DNA from: Selenomonadaceae bacterium | Lineage (GTDB): Bacteria; Bacillota; Negativicutes; Selenomonadales; Selenomonadaceae | Assembly (NCBI GenBank): GCA_017476425.1 | Contig: JAFUZV010000040.1 | Location: 1-32,797 of the forward strand | Direction: 5' to 3' | DNA: 32,797 nt | Shown: positions 812 to 32,464 of the stretch, one piece after another | How positions within the stretch are numbered: position 1 is the stretch's first letter | Layout of the letters: each line of letters starts with the position of its first letter | The notes under the pieces: model-generated | Seen by the model: only the letters and a program-made list of their open reading frames with translations | Database searches by the model: none | What the model was told of the DNA's origin: nothing | Made by a program: the position numbers and the translations under genes

Positions 812-3349
812 TTGTTTGGATTTTTAAAAAGATTTTTAGGTGATAACAACGAAAAAGAAATTAAACGAATGCAAAAAGTTGTAGATAAAATTAATTCGCT
901 TGAAACGACAATGCAAAATATGACTGATGATAAACTTGCAGGTCATACAGATAAATTCAAAGAACGTTTAGCCGCCGGCGAAAGTCTTGATGATTTTTTG
1001 CCGGAAGCATTCGCCGTTGTAAGAGAAGCATCACGAAGAGTTTTAGGAATGAGACATTTCGATGTTCAGTTGATCGGCGGAATGTGTTTGCACGAAGGAA
1101 AGATCGCTGAAATGAAAACCGGCGAAGGTAAAACTTTAGTAGCAACGTTACCTGTTTATTTGAATGCACTTGAAGGTAAAGGCGTTCATATGGTTACGGT
1201 TAATGATTATCTTGCTAAACGTGACTCTGAATGGATGGGACAATTATATAATTTTCTCGGCTTAACTGTTGGTTTGATTGTTCACGATCTTGATTTTCCT
1301 GAAAGAAAATTTGCTTATGGCTGCGATGTCACTTTTGGAACTAATAACGAATTTGGATTTGATTATCTGCGTGATAATATGGTAATTCACGAAGATCAAA
1401 TGGTTCAACGTCCGTTGCATTATGCGATCGTTGATGAAGTTGATTCGATTTTGATCGACGAGGCAAGAACGCCGCTGATAATTTCAGGACCCGGTGCAAA
1501 ATCGACTGAAATGTATGCAGTTATGGCTCGTGCCGTTGCTAATCTTAAAGAAGGTGATGACTATACTGTTGATGAGAAACAAAAAACCGTTGCACCGAAA
1601 GATGAAGTTATTCCACGAATTGAAAAATTATTAGGAATTAAAAATCTTTACGCGCCGGAAAATATTGAACTCTCTCATTGTTTCACCGCTGCATTGAGAG
1701 CTAAAGCACTTATGAAACGCGATCGAGATTATGTTGTTCGTGACAATGAAATTATTATTGTCGATGAATTTACCGGGCGTTTGATGACAGGTCGTCGTTA
1801 TTCTGACGGTTTACATCAAGCGATCGAAGCTAAAGAAGGCGTAAAAATTCAGCGTGAATCACAGACGCTTGCAACGATCACATTTCAAAATTATTTTAGA
1901 ATGTACGATAAATTAGCAGGTATGACTGGCACTGCTAAGACTGAAGAAGACGAATTTTTGAAAATCTACAAATTGCCGGTTATCGTTGTACCGACTAATA
2001 AACCTGTCAGACGTGTCGATCACCCGGACGTTATTTATAAAAATAAGCGTGCGAAATATAAAGCTGTTGGAAATGCTGTCGAAGAAATTCACGCTAAAGG
2101 ACAACCTATTTTGATCGGTACAACTTCAATCACTCAATCAGAAGAACTTTCAGCGATTCTTAAAAAACGTGGTATTCCTCATAATGTTTTGAATGCAAAA
2201 TTTCACGAAAAAGAGGCTGAAATTGTTGCTGATGCCGGTCAACGTGATGCAGTAACGATCGCAACGAATATGGCAGGTCGTGGAACTGATATTAAACTAG
2301 GTGAAGGTGTTCCTGAACTCGGCGGACTTTTCATTATTGGAACGGAACGCCACGAATCAAGGCGAATTGATAATCAGCTTAGAGGTCGCAGCGGTCGACA
2401 AGGTGATCCCGGCGAATCAAGATTTTATTTATCGCTTGAAGATGATCTGATGAGACTTTTTGCCTCTGAAAATATTGCTAAAATTATGGACAAGCTCGGT
2501 ATGGAAGAAGATGAACCGATCGAACATTCATTGATAACAAGATCGATTGAACACGCACAGAAAAAAGTTGAAGCTAGAAACTTTGATATTAGAAAACACG
2601 TTTTGGAATATGATGACGTTATGAATCAACAACGTGAAGTTATGTATGGTGAGCGCAAAAAAATTCTTCACGGTGAAAATTTGCGTGAAAATATTATTGG
2701 AATGGTTAATCACATTATCAAGCAAGAAATGAATCAATATGCTAATGAAAAACTTTATCCTGAAGAATGGCAACTTGATGAACTCATTAAGGACGCAGAA
2801 AGAATTTATGCGCCGAGTGGTAAATTAAAAGTTGATGAATTAGAACAACTTAGCCGCGATGAACTCAAGGAAGAATTAGAAAGCGTTGCTGAAAATTCTT
2901 ATAAACAGCGTGAAGAAATGTTCGGAGAATCAACAATGCGTGAACTTGAAAAAGTTGTAATGCTCCGAGTTGTCGATAATAAATGGATGGAACACCTTGA
3001 TCATATGGATATGTTGCGTGAAGGTATCAATTTAAGAGCTTACGGTCAGAGAAATCCACTTGTTGAATATAAAATTGAGGCTTTAGCAATGTTTGAAGAA
3101 ATGGAAGCGGCGATTCAAGATCAAATTGCAAGTCTAATGTATCACGTTGCAGTAGTCCAGCAAGAAGAAGAACAACTTGAAGATCGTCTGCAAAATGCAC
3201 AAGCATCTCACGGTGATGAAGTTTCTTCTGCTGAGGCTAAGAAGTCACCGAAAAAAAATCCTGACGGCAGTAAAGTTGGTAGAAATGATCCTTGTCCGTG
3301 CGGCAGTGGCAAGAAGTATAAAAATTGTTGTGGACGCAAGAAAAAATAA
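812..3349 (+). CDS. secA: SecA preprotein translocase ATPase
   Basis: The 845-residue product is the motor ATPase that drives unfolded secretory proteins through SecYEG. Visible features are the Walker A motif MKTGEGKT near residue 101, the [14 protein letters not shown] Walker B/DEAD region, the [10 protein letters not shown] and [10 protein letters not shown] helicase motifs, and a C-terminal zinc-binding tail [13 protein letters not shown] (CxCx8CC) of the kind that contacts SecB or the ribosome. The length is typical for Firmicutes. Translation starts at TTG 812, since GAGGTGA ends six bases upstream and the sequence reads [19 protein letters not shown]. The stop at 3347-3349 is followed directly by the ribosome binding site of the next gene, so secA probably heads a long operon reaching prfB and beyond. 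Confidence 0.98.
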
Positions 3350-4144: not shown

Positions 4145-4930
4145 ATGAATGAAGAAGAAATTATTGCCAGGATAAAAAATTTGCGTTTAATTGATGATAT
4201 ATTTTTCAATAAAGTTATGGAGATCAGCAGAGAATGTTTAGAATTAGTATTGAGAATAATTCTTGACATTGATGATCTTCACGTTGAAGAAGTTATAACT
4301 CAATGCGATGTTCCGAACGTAATTTATAAAGGCGTTCGTTTTGATGTTTTGGCAACGGCTAAAGGTAAGATTTACGATATTGAAATTCAACGCTCCGATG
4401 AAGGTGCAATTCCACGCCGTGCAAGATATAATAGCAGTATGTTAGACTCTCGATCGCTTGCTAAAGGTGTTGAATATCAAAAATTGCCTGAGTCCTATGT
4501 TATTTTTATAACTGAACACGACGTATTGAAAAAGAATTTGCCGATCTATCATATTGAAAGAATGATCACGGAAACAAACGAATCATTTAATGATGCTAGT
4601 CATATAATTTATGTCAACGGCGAAAATCGTGATGACAGTAAACTTGGTAGATTGATGCAAGATTTTTTCTGCAGAGATCCGCATAAGCTGAATTATAAAG
4701 AGATCGCCGAATGTTCAATTTATCTTAAAGAATCGAAAGAAGGTGTAACGTTTATGAGTCCAGTAGTTGAAGAGATTTATAATCAAGGTCTTGCTGTTGG
4801 AGAAAAAAAATTGATAGATGTTATAAAAAATCTCATAAATGCCGGAATGCCTATTGAGTTCATAAAGAATGTAACAGGTTATAACGAAGAGCAGATTATT
4901 GAAATTATTGGACAAAATCAAAAAAGTTGA
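4145..4930 (+). CDS. Rpn family PD-(D/E)XK nuclease / transposase-like protein (copy 1)
   Basis: The 261-residue protein belongs to the Rpn / PDDEXK_2 group (recombination-promoting nucleases, often annotated as transposases). The N-terminal half carries the catalytic pattern GVRFDVLATAKGKIYDIEIQ, giving Asp67, Glu80 and Gln82. This is followed by IPRRARYNSSMLDS and the usual YVIFITEHD and IIYVNGENR segments. The last 58 residues form a separate helical domain (GMPIEFIKNVTGYNEEQI). An ATG at codon 204 with a good ribosome binding site could start that domain alone (see 4754-4930). The upstream ribosome binding site of the full gene is weak. It sits inside the secA-prfB operon, an unusual place for an accessory nuclease. 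It is about 60 percent identical by eye to copy 2 at 23610-24452 over the nuclease domain. Confidence 0.88.
   Translation: MNEEEIIARIKNLRLIDDIFFNKVMEISRECLELVLRIILDIDDLHVEEVITQCDVPNVIYKGVRFDVLATAKGKIYDIEIQRSDEGAIPRRARYNSSMLDSRSLAKGVEYQKLPESYVIFITEHDVLKKNLPIYHIERMITETNESFNDASHIIYVNGENRDDSKLGRLMQDFFCRDPHKLNYKEIAECSIYLKESKEGVTFMSPVVEEIYNQGLAVGEKKLIDVIKNLINAGMPIEFIKNVTGYNEEQIIEIIGQNQKS
4754..4930 (+). CDS. Possible internal small isoform of Rpn copy 1 (C-terminal domain)
   Basis: An in-frame ATG at 4754 (codon 204 of the host gene) is preceded by AAGAAGGTG (about 4737-4745) with eight bases to the start. It would yield a 58-residue protein beginning MSPVVEEIYNQG. The same codon position and the same ATGAGTCC start context recur in the second Rpn gene. 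In the E. coli Rpn family, internally translated C-terminal proteins have been described that neutralise the toxic full-length nuclease. That mechanism is borrowed by analogy here; the sequence shows only the start site and the domain. Confidence 0.5.
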   Translation: MSPVVEEIYNQGLAVGEKKLIDVIKNLINAGMPIEFIKNVTGYNEEQIIEIIGQNQKS

Positions 4931-4952
4931 ATTGATTGAAGGACGTGAGATA

Positions 4953-5138
4953 ATGAGTCCGATTGTTGAAGAAATTTATAATCAAGGCAAAACTGAAAAT
5001 ATGTTTGAAATGGTGAGAAATTTTCTTAACGATGGAACACCGATTGAATTTATTAAAAAAGCAACCGGCTGGTCTGAAGAAAAGATCAATAAAATTATCC
5101 AAAAAAGCGATAACAAAAATAATGAGGAAGTGATTTAA
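4953..5138 (+). CDS. Stand-alone copy of the Rpn C-terminal domain
   Basis: The ORF encodes 61 residues starting MSPIVEEIYNQGK and containing DGTPIEFIKKATGWSEEKI, matching the C-terminal domain of the upstream Rpn (GMPIEFIKNVTGYNEEQI) at roughly half the positions. It has its own ribosome binding site, AAGGA (4939-4943) with nine bases to ATG 4953. A longer start at 4899 would overlap the Rpn gene and has no such site. It arose by a partial tandem duplication. Its TAA shares the A of the prfB ATG (TAATG), so prfB translation is likely coupled to it. By analogy with intragenic Rpn antitoxins it could act as a separate antitoxin or a divergent decoy. It could also be a leftover of a decayed second Rpn gene, but the frame is intact. 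Confidence 0.7.
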   Translation: MSPIVEEIYNQGKTENMFEMVRNFLNDGTPIEFIKKATGWSEEKINKIIQKSDNKNNEEVI

Positions 5139-23609: not shown

Positions 23610-23843
23610 TTACTCAACAGCAATATCATTTTGTTTAGCAATATCTTTGATTTTGTCAACCGTGAGCTTTGTAAATTTTGAAATCATTTCGATAGGTTGA
23701 TTAGCCTTAAGCATCTCAATAATAATTTCGGTTTTAGCTTTCAACTCACCACGTTTTTCGCCACGTTTTTCACCACGTTTTTCACCACGTTCTTCACCAC
23801 GTTTTTCGCTATCGTCAAGCCACTCTTTCAAAATCGGACTCAT
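23610..23843 (-). CDS. Possible internal small isoform of Rpn copy 2
   Basis: On the minus strand GGAGG (23855-23851) is followed by seven bases and an in-frame ATG at 23843, codon 204 of the Rpn gene. The 77-residue product would start MSPILKEWLDDSEKRG and hold the GEKR repeat and the C-terminal domain. The site is stronger than the one for the full-length gene, which would favour excess small protein, as expected of an antitoxin. Translation is inferred from the site. Confidence 0.6.
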   Translation of the reverse strand: MSPILKEWLDDSEKRGEERGEKRGEKRGEKRGELKAKTEIIIEMLKANQPIEMISKFTKLTVDKIKDIAKQNDIAVE

Positions 23844-24452
23844 TTTAATCCCTCCAAATTCATCATTTTTGATGTAATCTGTACGATTAGCAAGAATTGA
23901 ATAATTCATTTCGTTAGGATTAGCGCAGAAAAAATCCTGCATCAATTTTCCAAGTGCAGTATCATCTCTATTTTTGCCGTTGACGTAGATTATATAACTT
24001 CCATCATTAAACGCTTTGCCTGTCTCTTCAACAACTCGCTTAATATGATACAGCGGCTTATTTTCACCAATAACATCATTTTCAGTTATAAAAATAACGT
24101 AGCTTTCAGGCAATTTATCATAATCGACACCGGCTCTAAGTTCCTTTGAATCAAGCATACTTGCATTGTACCTTGCACGGCGTGGAATTGCACCTTCATC
24201 ACTTCGTTGAACTTCAATGTCATAAATTTTACCATTAGAAGTTGCAAAGACATCGAATCTGACACTGTGATATTTGAAGTTCGCAATATTTCTTTGTGTT
24301 GAGACTTCAATAACTTTTAAATCTGCGTCGTCAAGAATAATTTGCAGGATCAATTCAATACACTCCGGCGCACCATCCATACAAATATTAAAAAATATAT
24401 CGTCCATAAGACATAACTGTTGAATTTGTTCATTAAATTTTTGTTCGTTCAT
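23610..24452 (-). CDS. Rpn family PD-(D/E)XK nuclease / transposase-like protein (copy 2)
   Basis: The 280-residue paralogue of the gene at 4145 has the same catalytic layout: Asp67, Glu80 and Gln82 in SVRFDVFATSNGKIYDIEVQ, then IPRRARYNASMLDS and YVIFITENDV. The C-terminal part differs: after codon 204 it has a Gly-Glu-Lys-Arg repeat array (RGEERGEKRGEKRGEKRGE) before the final helical domain (NQPIEMISKFTKLTVDKIK). The internal ATG at codon 204 has a perfect ribosome binding site (see 23610-23843). The ribosome binding site of the full gene is weak. It lies between asd and a decayed gene. Rpn proteins act in recombination or phage defence. Confidence 0.88.
   Translation of the reverse strand: MNEQKFNEQIQQLCLMDDIFFNICMDGAPECIELILQIILDDADLKVIEVSTQRNIANFKYHSVRFDVFATSNGKIYDIEVQRSDEGAIPRRARYNASMLDSKELRAGVDYDKLPESYVIFITENDVIGENKPLYHIKRVVEETGKAFNDGSYIIYVNGKNRDDTALGKLMQDFFCANPNEMNYSILANRTDYIKNDEFGGIKMSPILKEWLDDSEKRGEERGEKRGEKRGEKRGELKAKTEIIIEMLKANQPIEMISKFTKLTVDKIKDIAKQNDIAVE
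23746..23809. repeat. 12-bp tandem repeat in Rpn copy 2
   Basis: About five copies of a 12-base unit (CACCACGTTTTT on the plus strand) encode the Arg-Gly-Glu-Lys/Glu array. One unit adds four residues without changing the frame, so length can vary between strains. Confidence 0.85.
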
Positions 24453-28718: not shown

Positions 28719-30176
28719 ATGACTCAATTTGATAAACGCAATATTAGTATGGTGATGGATCTTTATGAAATGACGATGGCGAACGGCTATTTTAAAAATG
28801 GCAGTACAAATTCAAGAGCCGCTTTTGATGTCTTCTATCGTCGAAATCCTGATCAAGGCGGCTTTGCGATCTTTGCCGGGCTTGAACAGATCATTGAATA
28901 CGTCGAGAATATGAATTTTTCTGATGATGACATTGATTATTTTCGCAGTCAAAAAATTTTTGCTGATGATTTTCTTGACTACTTGAAAAATTTTCATTTT
29001 CACGGCGATATTTATTCATTTCCTGAAGGCACGATTATGTATCCTAATGAGCCGTTTATGACGATCGTTGCTGATCTGATCGATGCACAGCTGATTGAAA
29101 CGGCGATACTTTGTCAAGTTAATCATCAATCATTGATCGCTACGAAGGCAAGAAGAATTGTCCGGGCGGCTGAAGGCAGATTAGTTTCTGATTTTGGTGC
29201 TCGTCGTGCACATAATATGGACGCGGCAACTTTCGGAGCTAGAGCGGCTTATATCGGCGGCGTTAATGGAACTGCAACTGTTTCAGCCGGTCACCTATTC
29301 AATATTCCTGTTAATGGAACAATGGCACATTCGTGGGTTATGTTCTTCGGCAGTGAGTTCGAGGCTTTCAAAAAGTATGCTGAATGTTATCCTGATTCAA
29401 CGGTTCTGCTTGTTGATACTTATGATGTAATTCATTCCGGCATTCCGAATGCGATCAAAGTTGCTAAAGAAGTTTTAGAGCCGATGGGTAAACGATTGAA
29501 AGGTATTAGAATCGACAGCGGCGATCTTGCTTACTTGTCGAAAAAAATTCGTAAGATGTTAGACGATGCCGGTTTAAACGATTGTAAGATTGTTGTATCA
29601 AACAGCCTTGATGAGTTCACGATAACTTCTCTGTTGAGTCAAGGCGCAGCGATCGACAGCTTTGGAGTTGGTGAGAGATTGATTACTGCAAAGTCGGAGC
29701 CGGTTTTCGGTGCAGTTTATAAAATTGCCGCTGTCCAACAAAATGATCTCTGGTCTCCACGAATTAAAGTTTCTGAGAACGTCGAAAAGATAACTAATCC
29801 GGGATTGAAAGATGTTTACAGAGTTTATAATTCTGACGGTCAAGCCGTCGCTGATATGATCGCTCTTCACGGTGAATCAGTCGATATGTCGCAGCCGTTT
29901 AGATATGTTGATCCGATCAAGCCGTGGAAGAATCGATCGTTTACTAACTGCACGGCTAAAAATCTTTGTCAGCTTTATGTTAAAGACGGTAAACGAACTC
30001 AAGCATTGCCGACGCTGAATGAGATTCGTGATTATGTTAAGGATCAACTCGCTAATGAAGTATGGCAAGAGGAACAGCGTTTTGAAAATCCTCATCATCA
30101 TTATCTTGATATGACTCCGGACTATTACGAAATGAAAATGAGTTTACTTTATGAAACGCGTAAGCAAACGAATTAA
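28719..30176 (+). CDS. pncB: Nicotinate phosphoribosyltransferase
   Basis: The 485-residue enzyme makes nicotinate mononucleotide from nicotinate and PRPP (NAD salvage). Family features are DLYEMTMANGYFKNGS at the N-terminus, SDFGARRAHNMDAA, the phosphorylated active-site His204 in NGTMAHSWVMFF, GIRIDSGDLAYLSKKIR and DSFGVGERLITA. GGAGGG precedes ATG 28719. The length is typical for the long Firmicute type. It has its own terminator and probably its own promoter. Confidence 0.95.
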   Translation: MTQFDKRNISMVMDLYEMTMANGYFKNGSTNSRAAFDVFYRRNPDQGGFAIFAGLEQIIEYVENMNFSDDDIDYFRSQKIFADDFLDYLKNFHFHGDIYSFPEGTIMYPNEPFMTIVADLIDAQLIETAILCQVNHQSLIATKARRIVRAAEGRLVSDFGARRAHNMDAATFGARAAYIGGVNGTATVSAGHLFNIPVNGTMAHSWVMFFGSEFEAFKKYAECYPDSTVLLVDTYDVIHSGIPNAIKVAKEVLEPMGKRLKGIRIDSGDLAYLSKKIRKMLDDAGLNDCKIVVSNSLDEFTITSLLSQGAAIDSFGVGERLITAKSEPVFGAVYKIAAVQQNDLWSPRIKVSENVEKITNPGLKDVYRVYNSDGQAVADMIALHGESVDMSQPFRYVDPIKPWKNRSFTNCTAKNLCQLYVKDGKRTQALPTLNEIRDYVKDQLANEVWQEEQRFENPHHHYLDMTPDYYEMKMSLLYETRKQTN

Positions 30177-30202
30177 ATGATTTAAAATTGTGAACTTGAA
30201 TG

Positions 30203-30231
30203 ATCTGCCTTAAATGACAGATTTTTTTTTG
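30203..30231 (+). terminator. Terminator after pncB
   Basis: ATCTG (30203-30207) pairs with CAGAT (30218-30222), followed by nine T residues. The stem is short. Confidence 0.65.
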
Positions 30232-30282
30232 CAGGAAAATTTTTAATTTATCATATTACAACAATATTATGGGGGTGTTCTA

Positions 30283-30345
30283 ATGGAACAGATGAACCTT
30301 TTTAATTATGACGATAGCCCTAAATCATTTAGGGACTGTTGGTAA
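30283..30345 (+). pseudogene. Gene start truncated by the IS5-like insertion
   Basis: After a GGGGGTG site, ATG 30283 reads MEQMNLFNYDDSPKSF and is cut by the insertion at 30332, ending in a stop supplied by the element. Past the element, a frame reads NKREYPRIYSWDETPKILLT (from about 30772) and then stops; it may be the continuation of the same lost gene. A perfect CCCTAAA/TTTAGGG hairpin (30318-30334) straddles the insertion point. The original protein is not recognisable. Confidence 0.45.
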
Positions 30346-30769
30346 ACTCATTTTAATTTAATTCTGATTGCAACATTCACTATAATCCAAAAACAATAAT
30401 TTATCAAATCTCATCGTAATGTGACGATTATTCTTTATCTTATTGAAATATCTCTCAACTATATTTCTCTGCTTGTATATTTCTTTATCAAATTGAACCT
30501 TGCAATAAGTTGAGTCTATTTCAATAAGGACTGATTTACCAGAGTTTAATTCTTTAAGTATGTTGATAAAAATATCTTGTTCGATCCATTGTCGGCATTT
30601 GTGATAAATACTATTCCAATTAACATAAGTTCTCAATATCCAAAAGATGGCGTTATTATCAAGTGGTGGTCTGCCTGTATTTTTGGCTTTTAAATGTTTG
30701 TCAAATTGTTCGGTTGTCAAATTAAAGAGATCAACTCTTGTTTTATTTTTATAGTTTACCAATACGCTC
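30332..30769 (-). mobile_element. Internally deleted IS5-like element, 438 bp
   Basis: The ends are GGGACTGTTGGTAAACT (30332-30348) and, inverted, GAGCGTATTGGTAAACT (30769-30753), sharing a perfect TTGGTAAACT. A TA dinucleotide flanks both sides (30330-30331 and 30770-30771), as expected of a TA target duplication. The single gene between is a shortened transposase. The element is about half the size of a full IS5-type element and is probably non-autonomous. Confidence 0.7.
30358..30762 (-). CDS. IS5-like transposase fusion with the catalytic middle deleted
   Basis: The 134-residue frame starts at TTG inside the terminal repeat. The first 90 residues match the N-terminal part of IS5-type transposases (LTTEQFDKHLK, the GRPPLDNNAIFWILRTYVNW region, then SIYHKCRQWIEQDIF) to the first catalytic Asp in LIEIDSTYCK. 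It then jumps to the C-terminal part (YKQRNIVERYFNKIKNNRHI and RFDKLLFLDY) with the catalytic Glu. The segment that normally holds the second Asp is missing, so activity is not expected. The frame stays open across the deletion. Confidence 0.72.
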   Translation of the reverse strand: MVNYKNKTRVDLFNLTTEQFDKHLKAKNTGRPPLDNNAIFWILRTYVNWNSIYHKCRQWIEQDIFINILKELNSGKSVLIEIDSTYCKVQFDKEIYKQRNIVERYFNKIKNNRHITMRFDKLLFLDYSECCNQN

Positions 30770-30771
30770 TA

Positions 30772-30825
30772 AACAAGCGTGAATACCCGCGAATTTATTC
30801 TTGGGATGAAACGCCCAAAATTTTA
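30772..30825. other. Flank remnant between IS5-like element and RNA candidate
   Basis: A short open frame (NKREYPRIYSWDETPK) and a small TTGGG/CCCAA hairpin (30801-30818) are all that can be seen; the gene they come from is lost. Confidence 0.3.
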
Positions 30826-30854
30826 TTGACATAGTCCATAAATTTCAATAAAAT
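30826..30854 (+). promoter_or_regulatory. Near-consensus promoter for an RNA candidate
   Basis: TTGACA (30826-30831), exactly 17 bp, TAAAAT (30849-30854). It is the best sigma-70-type promoter I see in the window, yet no open frame follows on this strand. Confidence 0.7.
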
Positions 30855-30860
30855 AAATTT

Positions 30861-31070
30861 ACTCAAACGGTTAGCCTTCCGTACAAAAAGTATAAACAAT
30901 CACAGTTTGAAAGAGAACCGTTTTGGAGCAAGCACTCGCCCCTTGCCGCAGCGTAGCACTTAGCGATTTAAATCGCCGGACTAAGTGAACTGTGACGGGT
31001 ATAAAAGAAGATACGAAAGTCGATAGTAAAAGATGGTGGGGAGACCTGTGGAAAGACCAGCTATAAAAAG
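30861..31070 (+). ncRNA. Candidate structured RNA of unknown family
   Basis: Downstream of the strong promoter the sequence is GC-richer than its surroundings and full of nested complementarity. AAACGGTT (30865-30872) pairs with AACCGTTT (30916-30923). CACAGTT (30901-30907) pairs with AACTGTG (30988-30994), which would cross the first stem as a pseudoknot. CACTTAG (30958-30964 region) pairs with CTAAGTG around a GCGAT/ATCGC inner stem, and GCAAG pairs with CTTGC. No plus-strand frame is convincing; the minus-strand 67-residue frame is of random composition. It matches no RNA I recognise (not RNase P, tmRNA, 6S or SRP). The 3-prime end is uncertain because no terminator is visible. Confidence 0.42.
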
Positions 31071-31328
31071 TCAAGTTAAATTGTAAGGTTTATTATCGCG
31101 AAGAACAGCAAAAATGTCAGATGCCATATCGATAACGTAATAAAGAGGAAGCCAATAATGTCCTGTCGCCTCCATTGCAAATTCTACAGGCTCATTTAAC
31201 TTTCTTACAGCATCCATAAATTTGCAATAACCGGAGTGCGAATTTTGAAACTTAATTTGCTTAACGATAACTTTGCCTTTCTCGTCAATAACGGCGGCTT
31301 CGTGAAATCTCCTGGCTATATCTTTTTA
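31071..31328 (-). pseudogene. IS110 family transposase, N-terminal fragment
   Basis: Minus-strand reading gives DIARRFHEAAVIDEKGKVIV, then FMDAVRKLNEPVEFAMEATG followed by HYWLPLYYVIDMASDIF, ending at a TGA (31073-31071). This is the start of the RuvC-like DEDD domain of IS110 transposases, including the second catalytic acid in MEATGHYW. About 300 C-terminal residues are missing, and the start codon has been lost: GGAGGGTTAAAAA is followed at once by the Asp-Ile-Ala codons, as if a few codons (Met to Gly-Ile) were deleted. Confidence 0.75.
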
Positions 31329-31335
31329 ACCCTCC

Positions 31336-31493
31336 ATTTGGACAATATATCTGATGATTTGCGGGTCAAAACCTACTTCGAGATGAAAAGACGGTACTTT
31401 ATCCGGCTCATAATTGAAAAACCATAGGTCAGAGTCTTCACACTTAGCAAAGTGGACAGCATCACAAGGTGGTTGATAGAAGAATTTCTGTCC
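31336..31493 (-). ncRNA. Possible bridge-RNA leader of the IS110 remnant
   Basis: On the minus strand an extended -10 (TG-A-TATAAT, 31508-31500) precedes about 160 bases upstream of the IS110 fragment. Read on the plus strand, the stems are GGACAG (31454-31459) with CTGTCC (31488-31493), CACTT/AAGTG (31441-31454), and AAAGAC (31387-31392) with GTCTTC (31434-31439) enclosing a large internal loop. IS110-group elements encode a bridge RNA in the left end, upstream of the recombinase, with such looped stems. The same stretch also holds a 59-codon open frame (about 31505-31326, ending IIRYIVQMEG), so a coding remnant is the alternative. Confidence 0.35.
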
Positions 31494-31562
31494 TTTGGGA
31501 TTATATCAAATTCTTATTGTTTCTAATATCTATTTTATTTTATTATAGTAGGTGGTGATTAA

Positions 31563-32339
31563 ATGGCAGATTTTGTTCCGATAGATGAGGCTATGAAGTC
31601 CGCATTGAAAGAATACGGCGAAGATTTTTACAAAGAATATTTGAGACGTTCGATAATTTATGGCTGGAAAGATATTATCGGCGAAACGAATGCTAAACAT
31701 ATTAAGCCGCTGAGAATTGAATATAAAAGACTTTATGTCTATGTCAGTGATAGTTCGTGGCGATCAACTGTTTATGCTTACAAGTCAACTTATCTTAAAA
31801 ATATCAATGAATTTGTTGGTGAAGAATTGATTGATGATATAGTTTTTGGTAAACCGGATGAAAAGCCTGTTGAAGTAGTCAAAAAGAATGATGAGCTTGA
31901 AGAAAGCGATCCGGCAGAAGAGATCAAGAAAATTAATTTGACTGATGAAGAAATTGCAGAGATCGAAAAATCCTGCGAAAAATACAATGATTCACCATTG
32001 AAAAACGTATTTTTAGAAACATCGATCAGCAGGTTGAAATATGAAAAGTATCTGCGAAAGAAAGGTCATCACGAATGCCCAAAATGTGGAAGACTTTGCA
32101 AGCCGGAAGAAAAAATTTGTAGTGATTGTCAAAGAAAAGAACGTGATCAACTTTATCAAGAGATCAGAAATATTTTTTATGAAGTGCCTTTTGCGACTTA
32201 TGCCGAAGTCAAAAATGAAATTTCTAATCGAATGCCGGAAATGTTAAGCTATTGTCAGCCTGATGTAGTCGATAGAATTAAATCAAATCTTGTTCAAGAA
32301 ATTTGCAGTACGTTGACGGCAAGGACGAAAAGAAGATAA
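31563..32339 (+). CDS. dciA: DUF721 (DciA-like) protein with C-terminal zinc-finger tail
   Basis: Residues 1-100 match DUF721 (YGWKDIIGETNAKHIKPLRIEYKRL, then LYVYVSDSSWRSTVYAYKST), the fold of the replicative helicase loader/operator DciA. An acidic linker follows, then CPKCGRLCKPEEKICSDCQ, a four-cysteine zinc-ribbon-like motif near residue 177, and a helical tail of about 60 residues. At 258 residues it is much longer than a bare DUF721 protein. It lies 114 bases before gyrB, as in many bacteria where DUF721 sits in the dnaA-dnaN-recF-gyrB cluster. GGTGGTGATTAA precedes the ATG. Confidence 0.82.
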   Translation: MADFVPIDEAMKSALKEYGEDFYKEYLRRSIIYGWKDIIGETNAKHIKPLRIEYKRLYVYVSDSSWRSTVYAYKSTYLKNINEFVGEELIDDIVFGKPDEKPVEVVKKNDELEESDPAEEIKKINLTDEEIAEIEKSCEKYNDSPLKNVFLETSISRLKYEKYLRKKGHHECPKCGRLCKPEEKICSDCQRKERDQLYQEIRNIFYEVPFATYAEVKNEISNRMPEMLSYCQPDVVDRIKSNLVQEICSTLTARTKRR

Positions 32340-32350
32340 AATTTTTAGTA

Positions 32351-32464
32351 ATGCTGTTTAAAGGTGTTAAGCCGAAAGATTTAACAGAAAAAATTATTTC
32401 TCAAACACTTTATGAATTGAGATATGATATACCGATGAAAGGAAGATGGAAATTTGAAAAATGA
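32351..32464 (+). CDS. Possible small protein between dciA and gyrB
   Basis: A 37-codon frame ([20 protein letters not shown], then a Tyr/Arg/Trp-containing end) starts at ATG 32351 and overlaps the gyrB start by 11 bases. The upstream ribosome binding site is poor. No family is recognised. It may be a leader peptide or chance. Confidence 0.3.

What the first reader, a model, noticed from the sequence alone, without database searches (positions are those of the whole stretch)
30826..31070. Strong promoter feeding a structured, non-coding region
TTGACA-17-TAAAAT precedes about 200 bases with several nested stems and a possible pseudoknot, and no plausible protein. It sits among mobile fragments and faces the IS110 remnant. 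It could be an unknown small RNA or the RNA part of a lost mobile system (bridge, omega or retron type).
Basis: partly seen in the sequence, partly recalled or inferred. Interest (0 to 1): 0.55.

Follow-up and report, generated by a model that had tools for sequence, protein, structure and literature searches.

The report
Broken solo guide-RNA mobile element
The promoter and structured stretch are the front half of a tiny mobile element that carries only a guide RNA for a TnpB-type DNA-cutting enzyme encoded elsewhere; this copy is broken, but whole copies exist in related rumen bacteria.

Summary
The promoter and the RNA are real, but this copy is a relic. Window 30862-31010 matches a covarying RNA domain ("R1") found in 24 of 199 related genomes, with no Rfam match. 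In fuller copies R1 lies between ends of IS200/IS605 type, behind a conserved sigma-70 promoter (32 of 41 copies; random windows 34 of 820), and is followed by a second domain ("R2"). R2 is the omegaRNA (reRNA) of a TnpB clade: it overlaps the tnpB end in 24 of 32 TnpB C-termini. The R1 elements have no tnpB, and the TnpB frame through R2 is broken in 18 of 24 of them, against 0 of 11 linked copies. They are TnpB-less, promoter-driven omegaRNA elements that would use TnpB and TnpA in trans. In the window the omegaRNA scaffold, right end and guide are missing; an IS110 remnant starts at about 31052. New are the solo architecture and the accessory R1 domain, whose role is unknown. Transcription and TnpB binding are untested.

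The parts
30777..30814 (+). Left-end (LE) hairpin of the solo element (GCGT..ACGC outer stem, CCC..GGG inner stem). No TTTAT/ATTAT motif is left in front of it.
   Evidence: Same place and shape as in L011, L020 and L179; blastn 30777-30820 to L020 85%, 30777-30881 to L011 73%; motif absent (row L145).
30826..30854 (+). Sigma-70-type promoter TTGACA-17-TAAAAT
   Evidence: conserved at this place in 32 of 41 copies.
30862..31010 (+). R1 accessory RNA domain (5' cap hairpin 30867-30882, second helix about 30902-30923 with one mismatch in this copy, covarying core about 30945-31000)
   Evidence: Covariance model R1, 146 bits; covariation. The window sequence is one of the ten used to build R1, so its score is by construction; blastn found the relatives first.
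31011..31051 (+). Remaining link sequence of the element, up to the break
   Evidence: Resembles the full-length copy L179 by eye; 30868-31034 matches L004 at 83%.
31052..31553 (-). IS110 remnant (C-terminal end at 31052, N-terminal part from about 31140, internal deletion) that takes the place of the omegaRNA half
   Evidence: Sixteen other IS110-type ends share AGACCRRCTATRAAAAGTCAAG from this point (near-identical, by eye); blastn to L008 in three pieces shows the internal deletion.

Best explanation
30777-31051 is the 5' half of a non-autonomous IS200/IS605-type element that carries a stand-alone, promoter-driven omegaRNA instead of tnpB. An intact element is: insertion motif (TTTAT or ATTAT), left-end hairpin, sigma-70 promoter, 5' cap hairpin, accessory R1 domain, omegaRNA scaffold R2, right-end hairpin ending TCAA or TCAG, then host DNA. 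By the established TnpB mechanism the transcript would run past the right end, so that about 16 nt copied from the flank serve as guide. A TnpB made elsewhere in the cell would bind R2, trim the 5' side and cut unoccupied copies of the insertion site, so that the element is kept after TnpA-driven excision. The window copy has no R2, right end or guide, so it cannot guide anything; at most it makes an R1 transcript. Shown by comparison: anatomy, covariation, conserved promoter, identity of R2 with the tnpB 3' end, absence of tnpB, copies at unrelated sites. Inferred: transcription, TnpB loading in trans, trimming, retention by cutting, mobilisation by TnpA in trans.
For: R1 covaries and is in 24 of 199 relatives. 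16 of the 20 copies fetched with flanks have R2 and a right-end hairpin behind R1. The promoter is conserved. TTTAT, ATTAT or TTGAT lies within 13 nt of the left end in 16 of 25 copies against 70 of 1250 random 13-mers. R2 overlaps the tnpB end in 24 of 32 TnpB C-termini, the protein is a TnpB, and synonymous codons are most conserved at that end. The TnpB frame through R2 is open in 11 of 11 linked but 6 of 24 solo copies. In one-contig genome G345 nine R2 copies are four with full TnpB, three with TnpB fragments, two with R1. Near-identical pairs L174/L175 and L240/L241 have different flanks. No R2 in the window.
Against: No expression or binding data. TnpB of this clade found in only 14 of 24 R1 genomes (6 of 20 without R1; p = 0.076) and TnpA in 8 of 44, though most are draft MAGs. 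44 of 125 R2 matches have neither R1 nor TnpB listed. Single-sequence folds are no better than shuffles. Eight of 32 TnpB C-termini have no listed R2.
Confidence: 0.78

Rival explanations
1. Ordinary MITE-like deletion derivatives: TnpB elements that lost most of tnpB; R2 is passively inherited as part of the right end needed for transposition, and promoter and R1 have no guide-related function.
For: L240, L241 and L243 still read as the last TnpB codons; shared ends with TnpB elements; cognate TnpB not found in 10 of 24 R1 genomes.
Against: R1 covaries and the promoter is conserved; R2 keeps its base pairs while its coding frame is lost in 18 of 24.
Confidence: 0.12
2. Mini-IStron or other self-splicing element: R1 is a ribozyme that removes the insertion from transcripts.
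For: A TnpB element of the same clade carries a group I intron (L231, Intron_gpI 65.5 bits); insertion motif and 3' end fit group A IStrons (PMC4227781 passages).
Against: No group I match in the seven solo loci of the same call or the eleven; own promoter. Limit: Rfam also missed L232, in which I saw group-I-like motifs by eye, so a divergent intron could be missed.
Confidence: 0.04
3. A mobile 5' leader or sRNA that regulates the gene next to it, unrelated to TnpB.
For: In 11 of 19 copies a same-strand ORF of over 100 codons begins within 60 nt after the element (mechanical ORFs, my count).
Against: R2 is TnpB omegaRNA; downstream genes differ from copy to copy; opposite-strand ORFs lie there in other copies.
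Confidence: 0.04
4. IS110 bridge RNA on the + strand beside the IS110 remnant.
For: It adjoins an IS110 remnant.
Against: Homologues lie between IS605-type ends, with no IS110 needed; the IS110 end begins exactly where the homology stops.
Confidence: 0.01

Closest known systems
TnpB reRNA/omegaRNA of IS200/IS605 elements (ISDra2; PMC8612924 passages, PMC10278001 passages)
   Same: Scaffold at the tnpB 3' end plus right end, variable flank in guide position, insertion next to a T-rich pentamer
   Different: No tnpB in the element; own promoter; extra 5' domain R1; the window copy lacks the scaffold
Non-autonomous IS200/IS605 elements (PATE/MITE type; name recalled)
   Same: Both hairpin ends, no transposase gene, several copies at different sites
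   Different: Carries a promoter and a conserved guide-RNA-like gene
Group A IStrons (PMC4227781 passages)
   Same: Insertion after TTGAT/ATTAT/TTTAT, 3' end TCAG in some copies; ORF-less IStrons exist (BcISt1, which the paper places in group B)
   Different: No group I intron found in the solo elements
Stand-alone omegaRNA loci of IscB (recalled, paper not held)
   Same: Guide RNA gene apart from its nuclease gene
   Different: Here TnpB, not IscB; different RNA; carried on its own mobile element
IS110 bridge RNA (PMC11208160, listing only)
   Same: Adjoins an IS110 piece in this window
   Different: Not part of IS110 in relatives

Membership tests
TnpB omegaRNA (IS200/IS605) | RNA scaffold shared with the 3' end of tnpB | tested here: met
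   Met for full-length relatives (24 of 32 TnpB ends overlap R2). Not met for the window copy, which has no R2.
TnpB omegaRNA (IS200/IS605) | Right-end hairpin ending TCAA/TCAG, then host flank as guide | tested here: met
   Met in 16 of 20 fetched copies (exact last letters vary); absent in the window copy.
TnpB omegaRNA (IS200/IS605) | tnpB in the same element | tested here: not met
   The TnpB reading frame through R2 is broken in 18 of 24 solo copies; the space between promoter and R2 holds R1.
TnpB omegaRNA (IS200/IS605) | Binds TnpB and guides cutting | not testable with these tools
   Needs an experiment.
Non-autonomous IS200/IS605 element | IS605-type ends, T-rich insertion motif, no tnpA or tnpB, several copies with different flanks | tested here: met
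   for the window copy only the left end is present and the motif is missing.
IStron | Group I intron core | tested here: not met
   Rfam: found in L231, not in 7 + 11 solo loci; L232 also not found.
IscB omegaRNA (HEARO) | iscB in the genome; Rfam HEARO match | tested here: not met
   RRXRR in 3 of 41 genomes, none of the ten R1 genomes among the 41; no Rfam match.
IS110 bridge RNA | Lies in the non-coding end of an IS110 | tested here: not met
   Relatives lie between IS605 ends.
Retron ncRNA | Adjacent reverse transcriptase | not tested
   No search for reverse transcriptases was run.

The most novel reading that the evidence does not exclude
R1 is a new functional RNA module that lets TnpB-less elements live off TnpB proteins made by other elements: a promoter-driven leader that makes an omegaRNA work in trans by protecting it, replacing its release from the tnpB mRNA, or tuning TnpB. 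It is joined to at least two omegaRNA types (SKQN-like and SKVV-like peptides), as expected of a transferable hijacking module; the solo elements would be guide-RNA-only parasites of RNA-guided transposons.
Probability: 0.4. Interest if true: 0.78.

Novelty: new variant of a known kind. Interest (0 to 1): 0.57.

Why it matters
TnpB nucleases are thought to keep IS200/IS605 elements in genomes by cutting empty sites with an omegaRNA released from their own mRNA. Small elements that carry only the guide RNA, with their own promoter and an extra conserved domain, would be a natural case of omegaRNA working in trans and of parasitism on RNA-guided transposons. They make it testable whether TnpB accepts guides from other elements and what a 5' leader adds. 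Neither domain gave an Rfam match here, so annotation would overlook such elements. The window copy itself is only a relic.

Tried and rejected
Rfam on the window, relatives and fuller copies: no match to the feature; the best sub-threshold match (Plastid-atpF, E 0.39) lies in AT-rich promoter DNA and was taken as chance. Single-sequence folding as evidence: rejected (z +0.81, -0.60, +0.19, -1.39). R1 as a piece of tnpB coding sequence: rejected, because synonymous identity is highest only in the last windows (0.65, 0.72, 0.80; elsewhere 0.34 to 0.70) and none of the TnpB loci L222-L233 has a same-strand R1 match (L225 has a 31.6-bit match on the other strand; partial matches of 17.6 to 24.2 bits in L234, L237, L239 are minimal solo elements). 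Group I intron: rejected. IscB: rejected. Spread by plasmids, phages, viruses: one full-length copy gave no blastn match in plasmids or phages; two exact patterns gave none in viral contigs. Empty site by synteny: blastn of window 30100-32400 against 37 relatives' loci gave matches only up to 30178, so no empty site was seen. A pairing of R1 with the right end seen in one fold was not kept across copies by eye and was dropped. Distribution: R1 in 28 of 380 genomes of the class (overlapping) and 3 of 398 of the phylum, the own genome and two others, all of this class.

Literature: nine searches (listings and abstract starts seen) listed no paper that I recognised as describing promoter-driven TnpB-less omegaRNA elements. 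Only CC-licensed papers are held and four key papers were not available, so this does not show that it is unpublished.

Full report
Origin. The window is a contig of a draft genome (G000, 2.9 Mb, 237 contigs). Its nicotinate phosphoribosyltransferase gene is closest to uncultured Selenomonadaceae, mostly from ruminants, and Quinella sp. 1Q7 and 1Q5 are among the relatives; I treat it as Quinella-like, which is inference.

The observation. The promoter TTGACA-N17-TAAAAT is at 30826-30854. The bases behind it hold no plausible protein. Energy alone does not show structure (z = +0.81). But the region is not unique: blastn against 99 related genomes gave matches in 26 of them; those to the RNA part include 83% over query 89-255 in G002 and 88% over 143-255 in G057, while many of the others are to the last 60 bases, which are IS110, or to the left end.

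A covarying RNA domain. Ten copies, the window among them, aligned with MAFFT give a consensus of 19 pairs, five with changes on both sides. The covariance model R1 built from them matches 24 of 199 related genomes, with up to 13 copies in one, and 28 of 380 genomes of the class, an overlapping set. In a sample of 398 genomes of the phylum the three matches are the own genome and two others of this class. On 43 copies 61 cells have both sides changed with the pair kept, against 20.9 in shuffles and 1 to 11 in slid controls, and 94% of cells pair; eight pairs have both-side changes against 5.3; further pair types are not above shuffles, 19 against 22.1. That alignment was fitted to the model and leans towards it. 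Rfam gave no match.

What fuller copies look like. Of 20 copies fetched with flanks, 16 have a second conserved domain and a right-end hairpin behind R1; two are cut by contig ends (L180, L191), L181 has a divergent 3' part and L187 lacks it. The common layout is a hairpin such as GCGGCGTAAGACCCCTAGCTTTAGCTATGGGGATATAAGCCGC, the promoter, R1, the second domain, and a hairpin of the form GAATCCCC..GGGGAGTGTCAA, then unrelated sequence; several copies, for example L177, L183, L189 and L190, lack a typical left end or promoter. The ends are of IS200/IS605 type (their likeness to IS608 is recalled, not tested). A promoter of >=9/12 stands directly before R1 in 32 of 41 copies, 34 of 820 in random windows (2 of 43 were too short). 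TTTAT, ATTAT or TTGAT lies within 13 nt of the left end in 16 of 25 copies, 70 of 1250 in random 13-mers; of 39 copies given, 13 showed no left end to my pattern and one was too short, and four of the 43 were not given. The window copy has no such motif. PMC4227781 (passages) gives TTGAT, ATTAT or TTTAT as insertion sites of group A IStrons and TCAG as their 3' end. The near-identical pairs L174/L175 and L240/L241 have different flanks, so the elements have moved.

The second domain is the omegaRNA of TnpB. Eighteen copies (8 pairs, 4 with both-side changes) gave model R2, which matches 49 of 199 genomes. NCBIfam names the protein guided_TnpB, and Pfam agrees; no solved structure is close by sequence. 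In 12 tnpB genes or pieces the identity of synonymous codons is highest at the end (0.65, 0.72, 0.80 in the last three windows that hold many codons; 0.34 to 0.70 before). Several TnpB-bearing elements share left and right ends with the solo elements. Of the 125 listed R2 matches in those 44 genomes 37 follow R1, 24 overlap TnpB, 20 start at a contig edge (tested on one strand only) and 44 have neither; among the last, L234 and L237 are minimal solo elements with promoter and cap hairpin but no R1 core, as seen by eye.

The solo RNA is mostly no longer coding. Through R2 the TnpB frame is open in 11 of 11 linked copies and in 6 of 24 solo copies, which include near-duplicates. The open ones are L188; L240, L241 and L243, which still read as the end of TnpB and look like an early state; and L174/L175, whose peptide resembles the TnpB of L231. 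So solo elements carry at least two omegaRNA types. In the one-contig genome G345 (2,478,942 bases) the nine R2 copies are four with full-length TnpB, three with TnpB fragments and two with R1: solo and complete elements live together.

The window copy. R1 covers 30862-31010 (146 bits, by construction high). By eye, homology to L179 runs to about 31051. There the conserved end of an IS110 begins, shared by sixteen other copies shown, and the remnant runs to about 31553, ten bases before dciA. No R2 match exists in the window at E<=1. R2, right end and guide are gone, probably through the IS110 and a deletion; no empty site was found to show the order of events.

How it would work. In the published mechanism (PMC8612924 and PMC10278001, passages) TnpB binds RNA made of the tnpB 3' end and right end plus about 16 nt of flank, can process the 5' side from its own mRNA, and cuts DNA matching the flank beside the motif. 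A solo RNA has scaffold, right end and flank, so a TnpB from elsewhere could use it to cut the empty site of the solo element. [quoted passage not shown] R1, which stands where the mRNA would be, could protect, replace or tune that part. All this is inference.

Results against. TnpB of this clade was found in 14 of 24 genomes with R1 and 6 of 20 without, p = 0.076; the 20 are those listed without a match, not a random draw. TnpA was found in 8 of 44. 39 of 76 R1 hits have no listed R2 partner. Passive, MITE-like retention is not excluded, above all for copies with an open frame.

Verdict. It is a new variant of a known kind: TnpB-less, promoter-driven omegaRNA elements with an accessory RNA domain. 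Stand-alone omegaRNAs of IscB are known to me by recall only (paper not held).

Noticed in passing
L231 (G023:C16), 204-535; L232 (own genome, G000:C16:6500-9200): A TnpB element of the same clade carries a group I intron in front of tnpB (Rfam Intron_gpI, 65.5 bits), so it is IStron-like; L232 in the own genome shows similar motifs by eye, not found by Rfam, and its tnpB is split.
   Followed up: partly
window 31140-31553, minus strand: N-terminal part and 5' non-coding end of the IS110 remnant, where a bridge RNA would lie in IS110 elements (recalled); not examined.
   Followed up: no
window 30283-30348: A start codon behind a GGGGGTG ribosome-site-like motif opens a 20-codon frame that runs into GGGACTGTTGGTAAAC, an end motif also seen near the IS110 of L008: probably a gene cut by an insertion sequence.
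   Followed up: no
window 4145-4930 and 23610-24452: Two similar ORFs that resemble Rpn/PD-(D/E)XK transposase-like proteins (recalled, not tested), beside a short duplicate at 4899-5138.
   Followed up: no
L007, L182, L184, L189, L190 and others: Solo elements often lie just before a same-strand ORF (11 of 19 within 60 nt, my count); whether the element's promoter drives that gene is unknown.
   Followed up: partly
L225 (G001:C32:5800-8524), 1203-1409, minus strand: Weak R2 (33.1 bits) and R1 (31.6 bits) matches that overlap on the strand opposite to a TnpB fragment: perhaps an old solo element.
   Followed up: no
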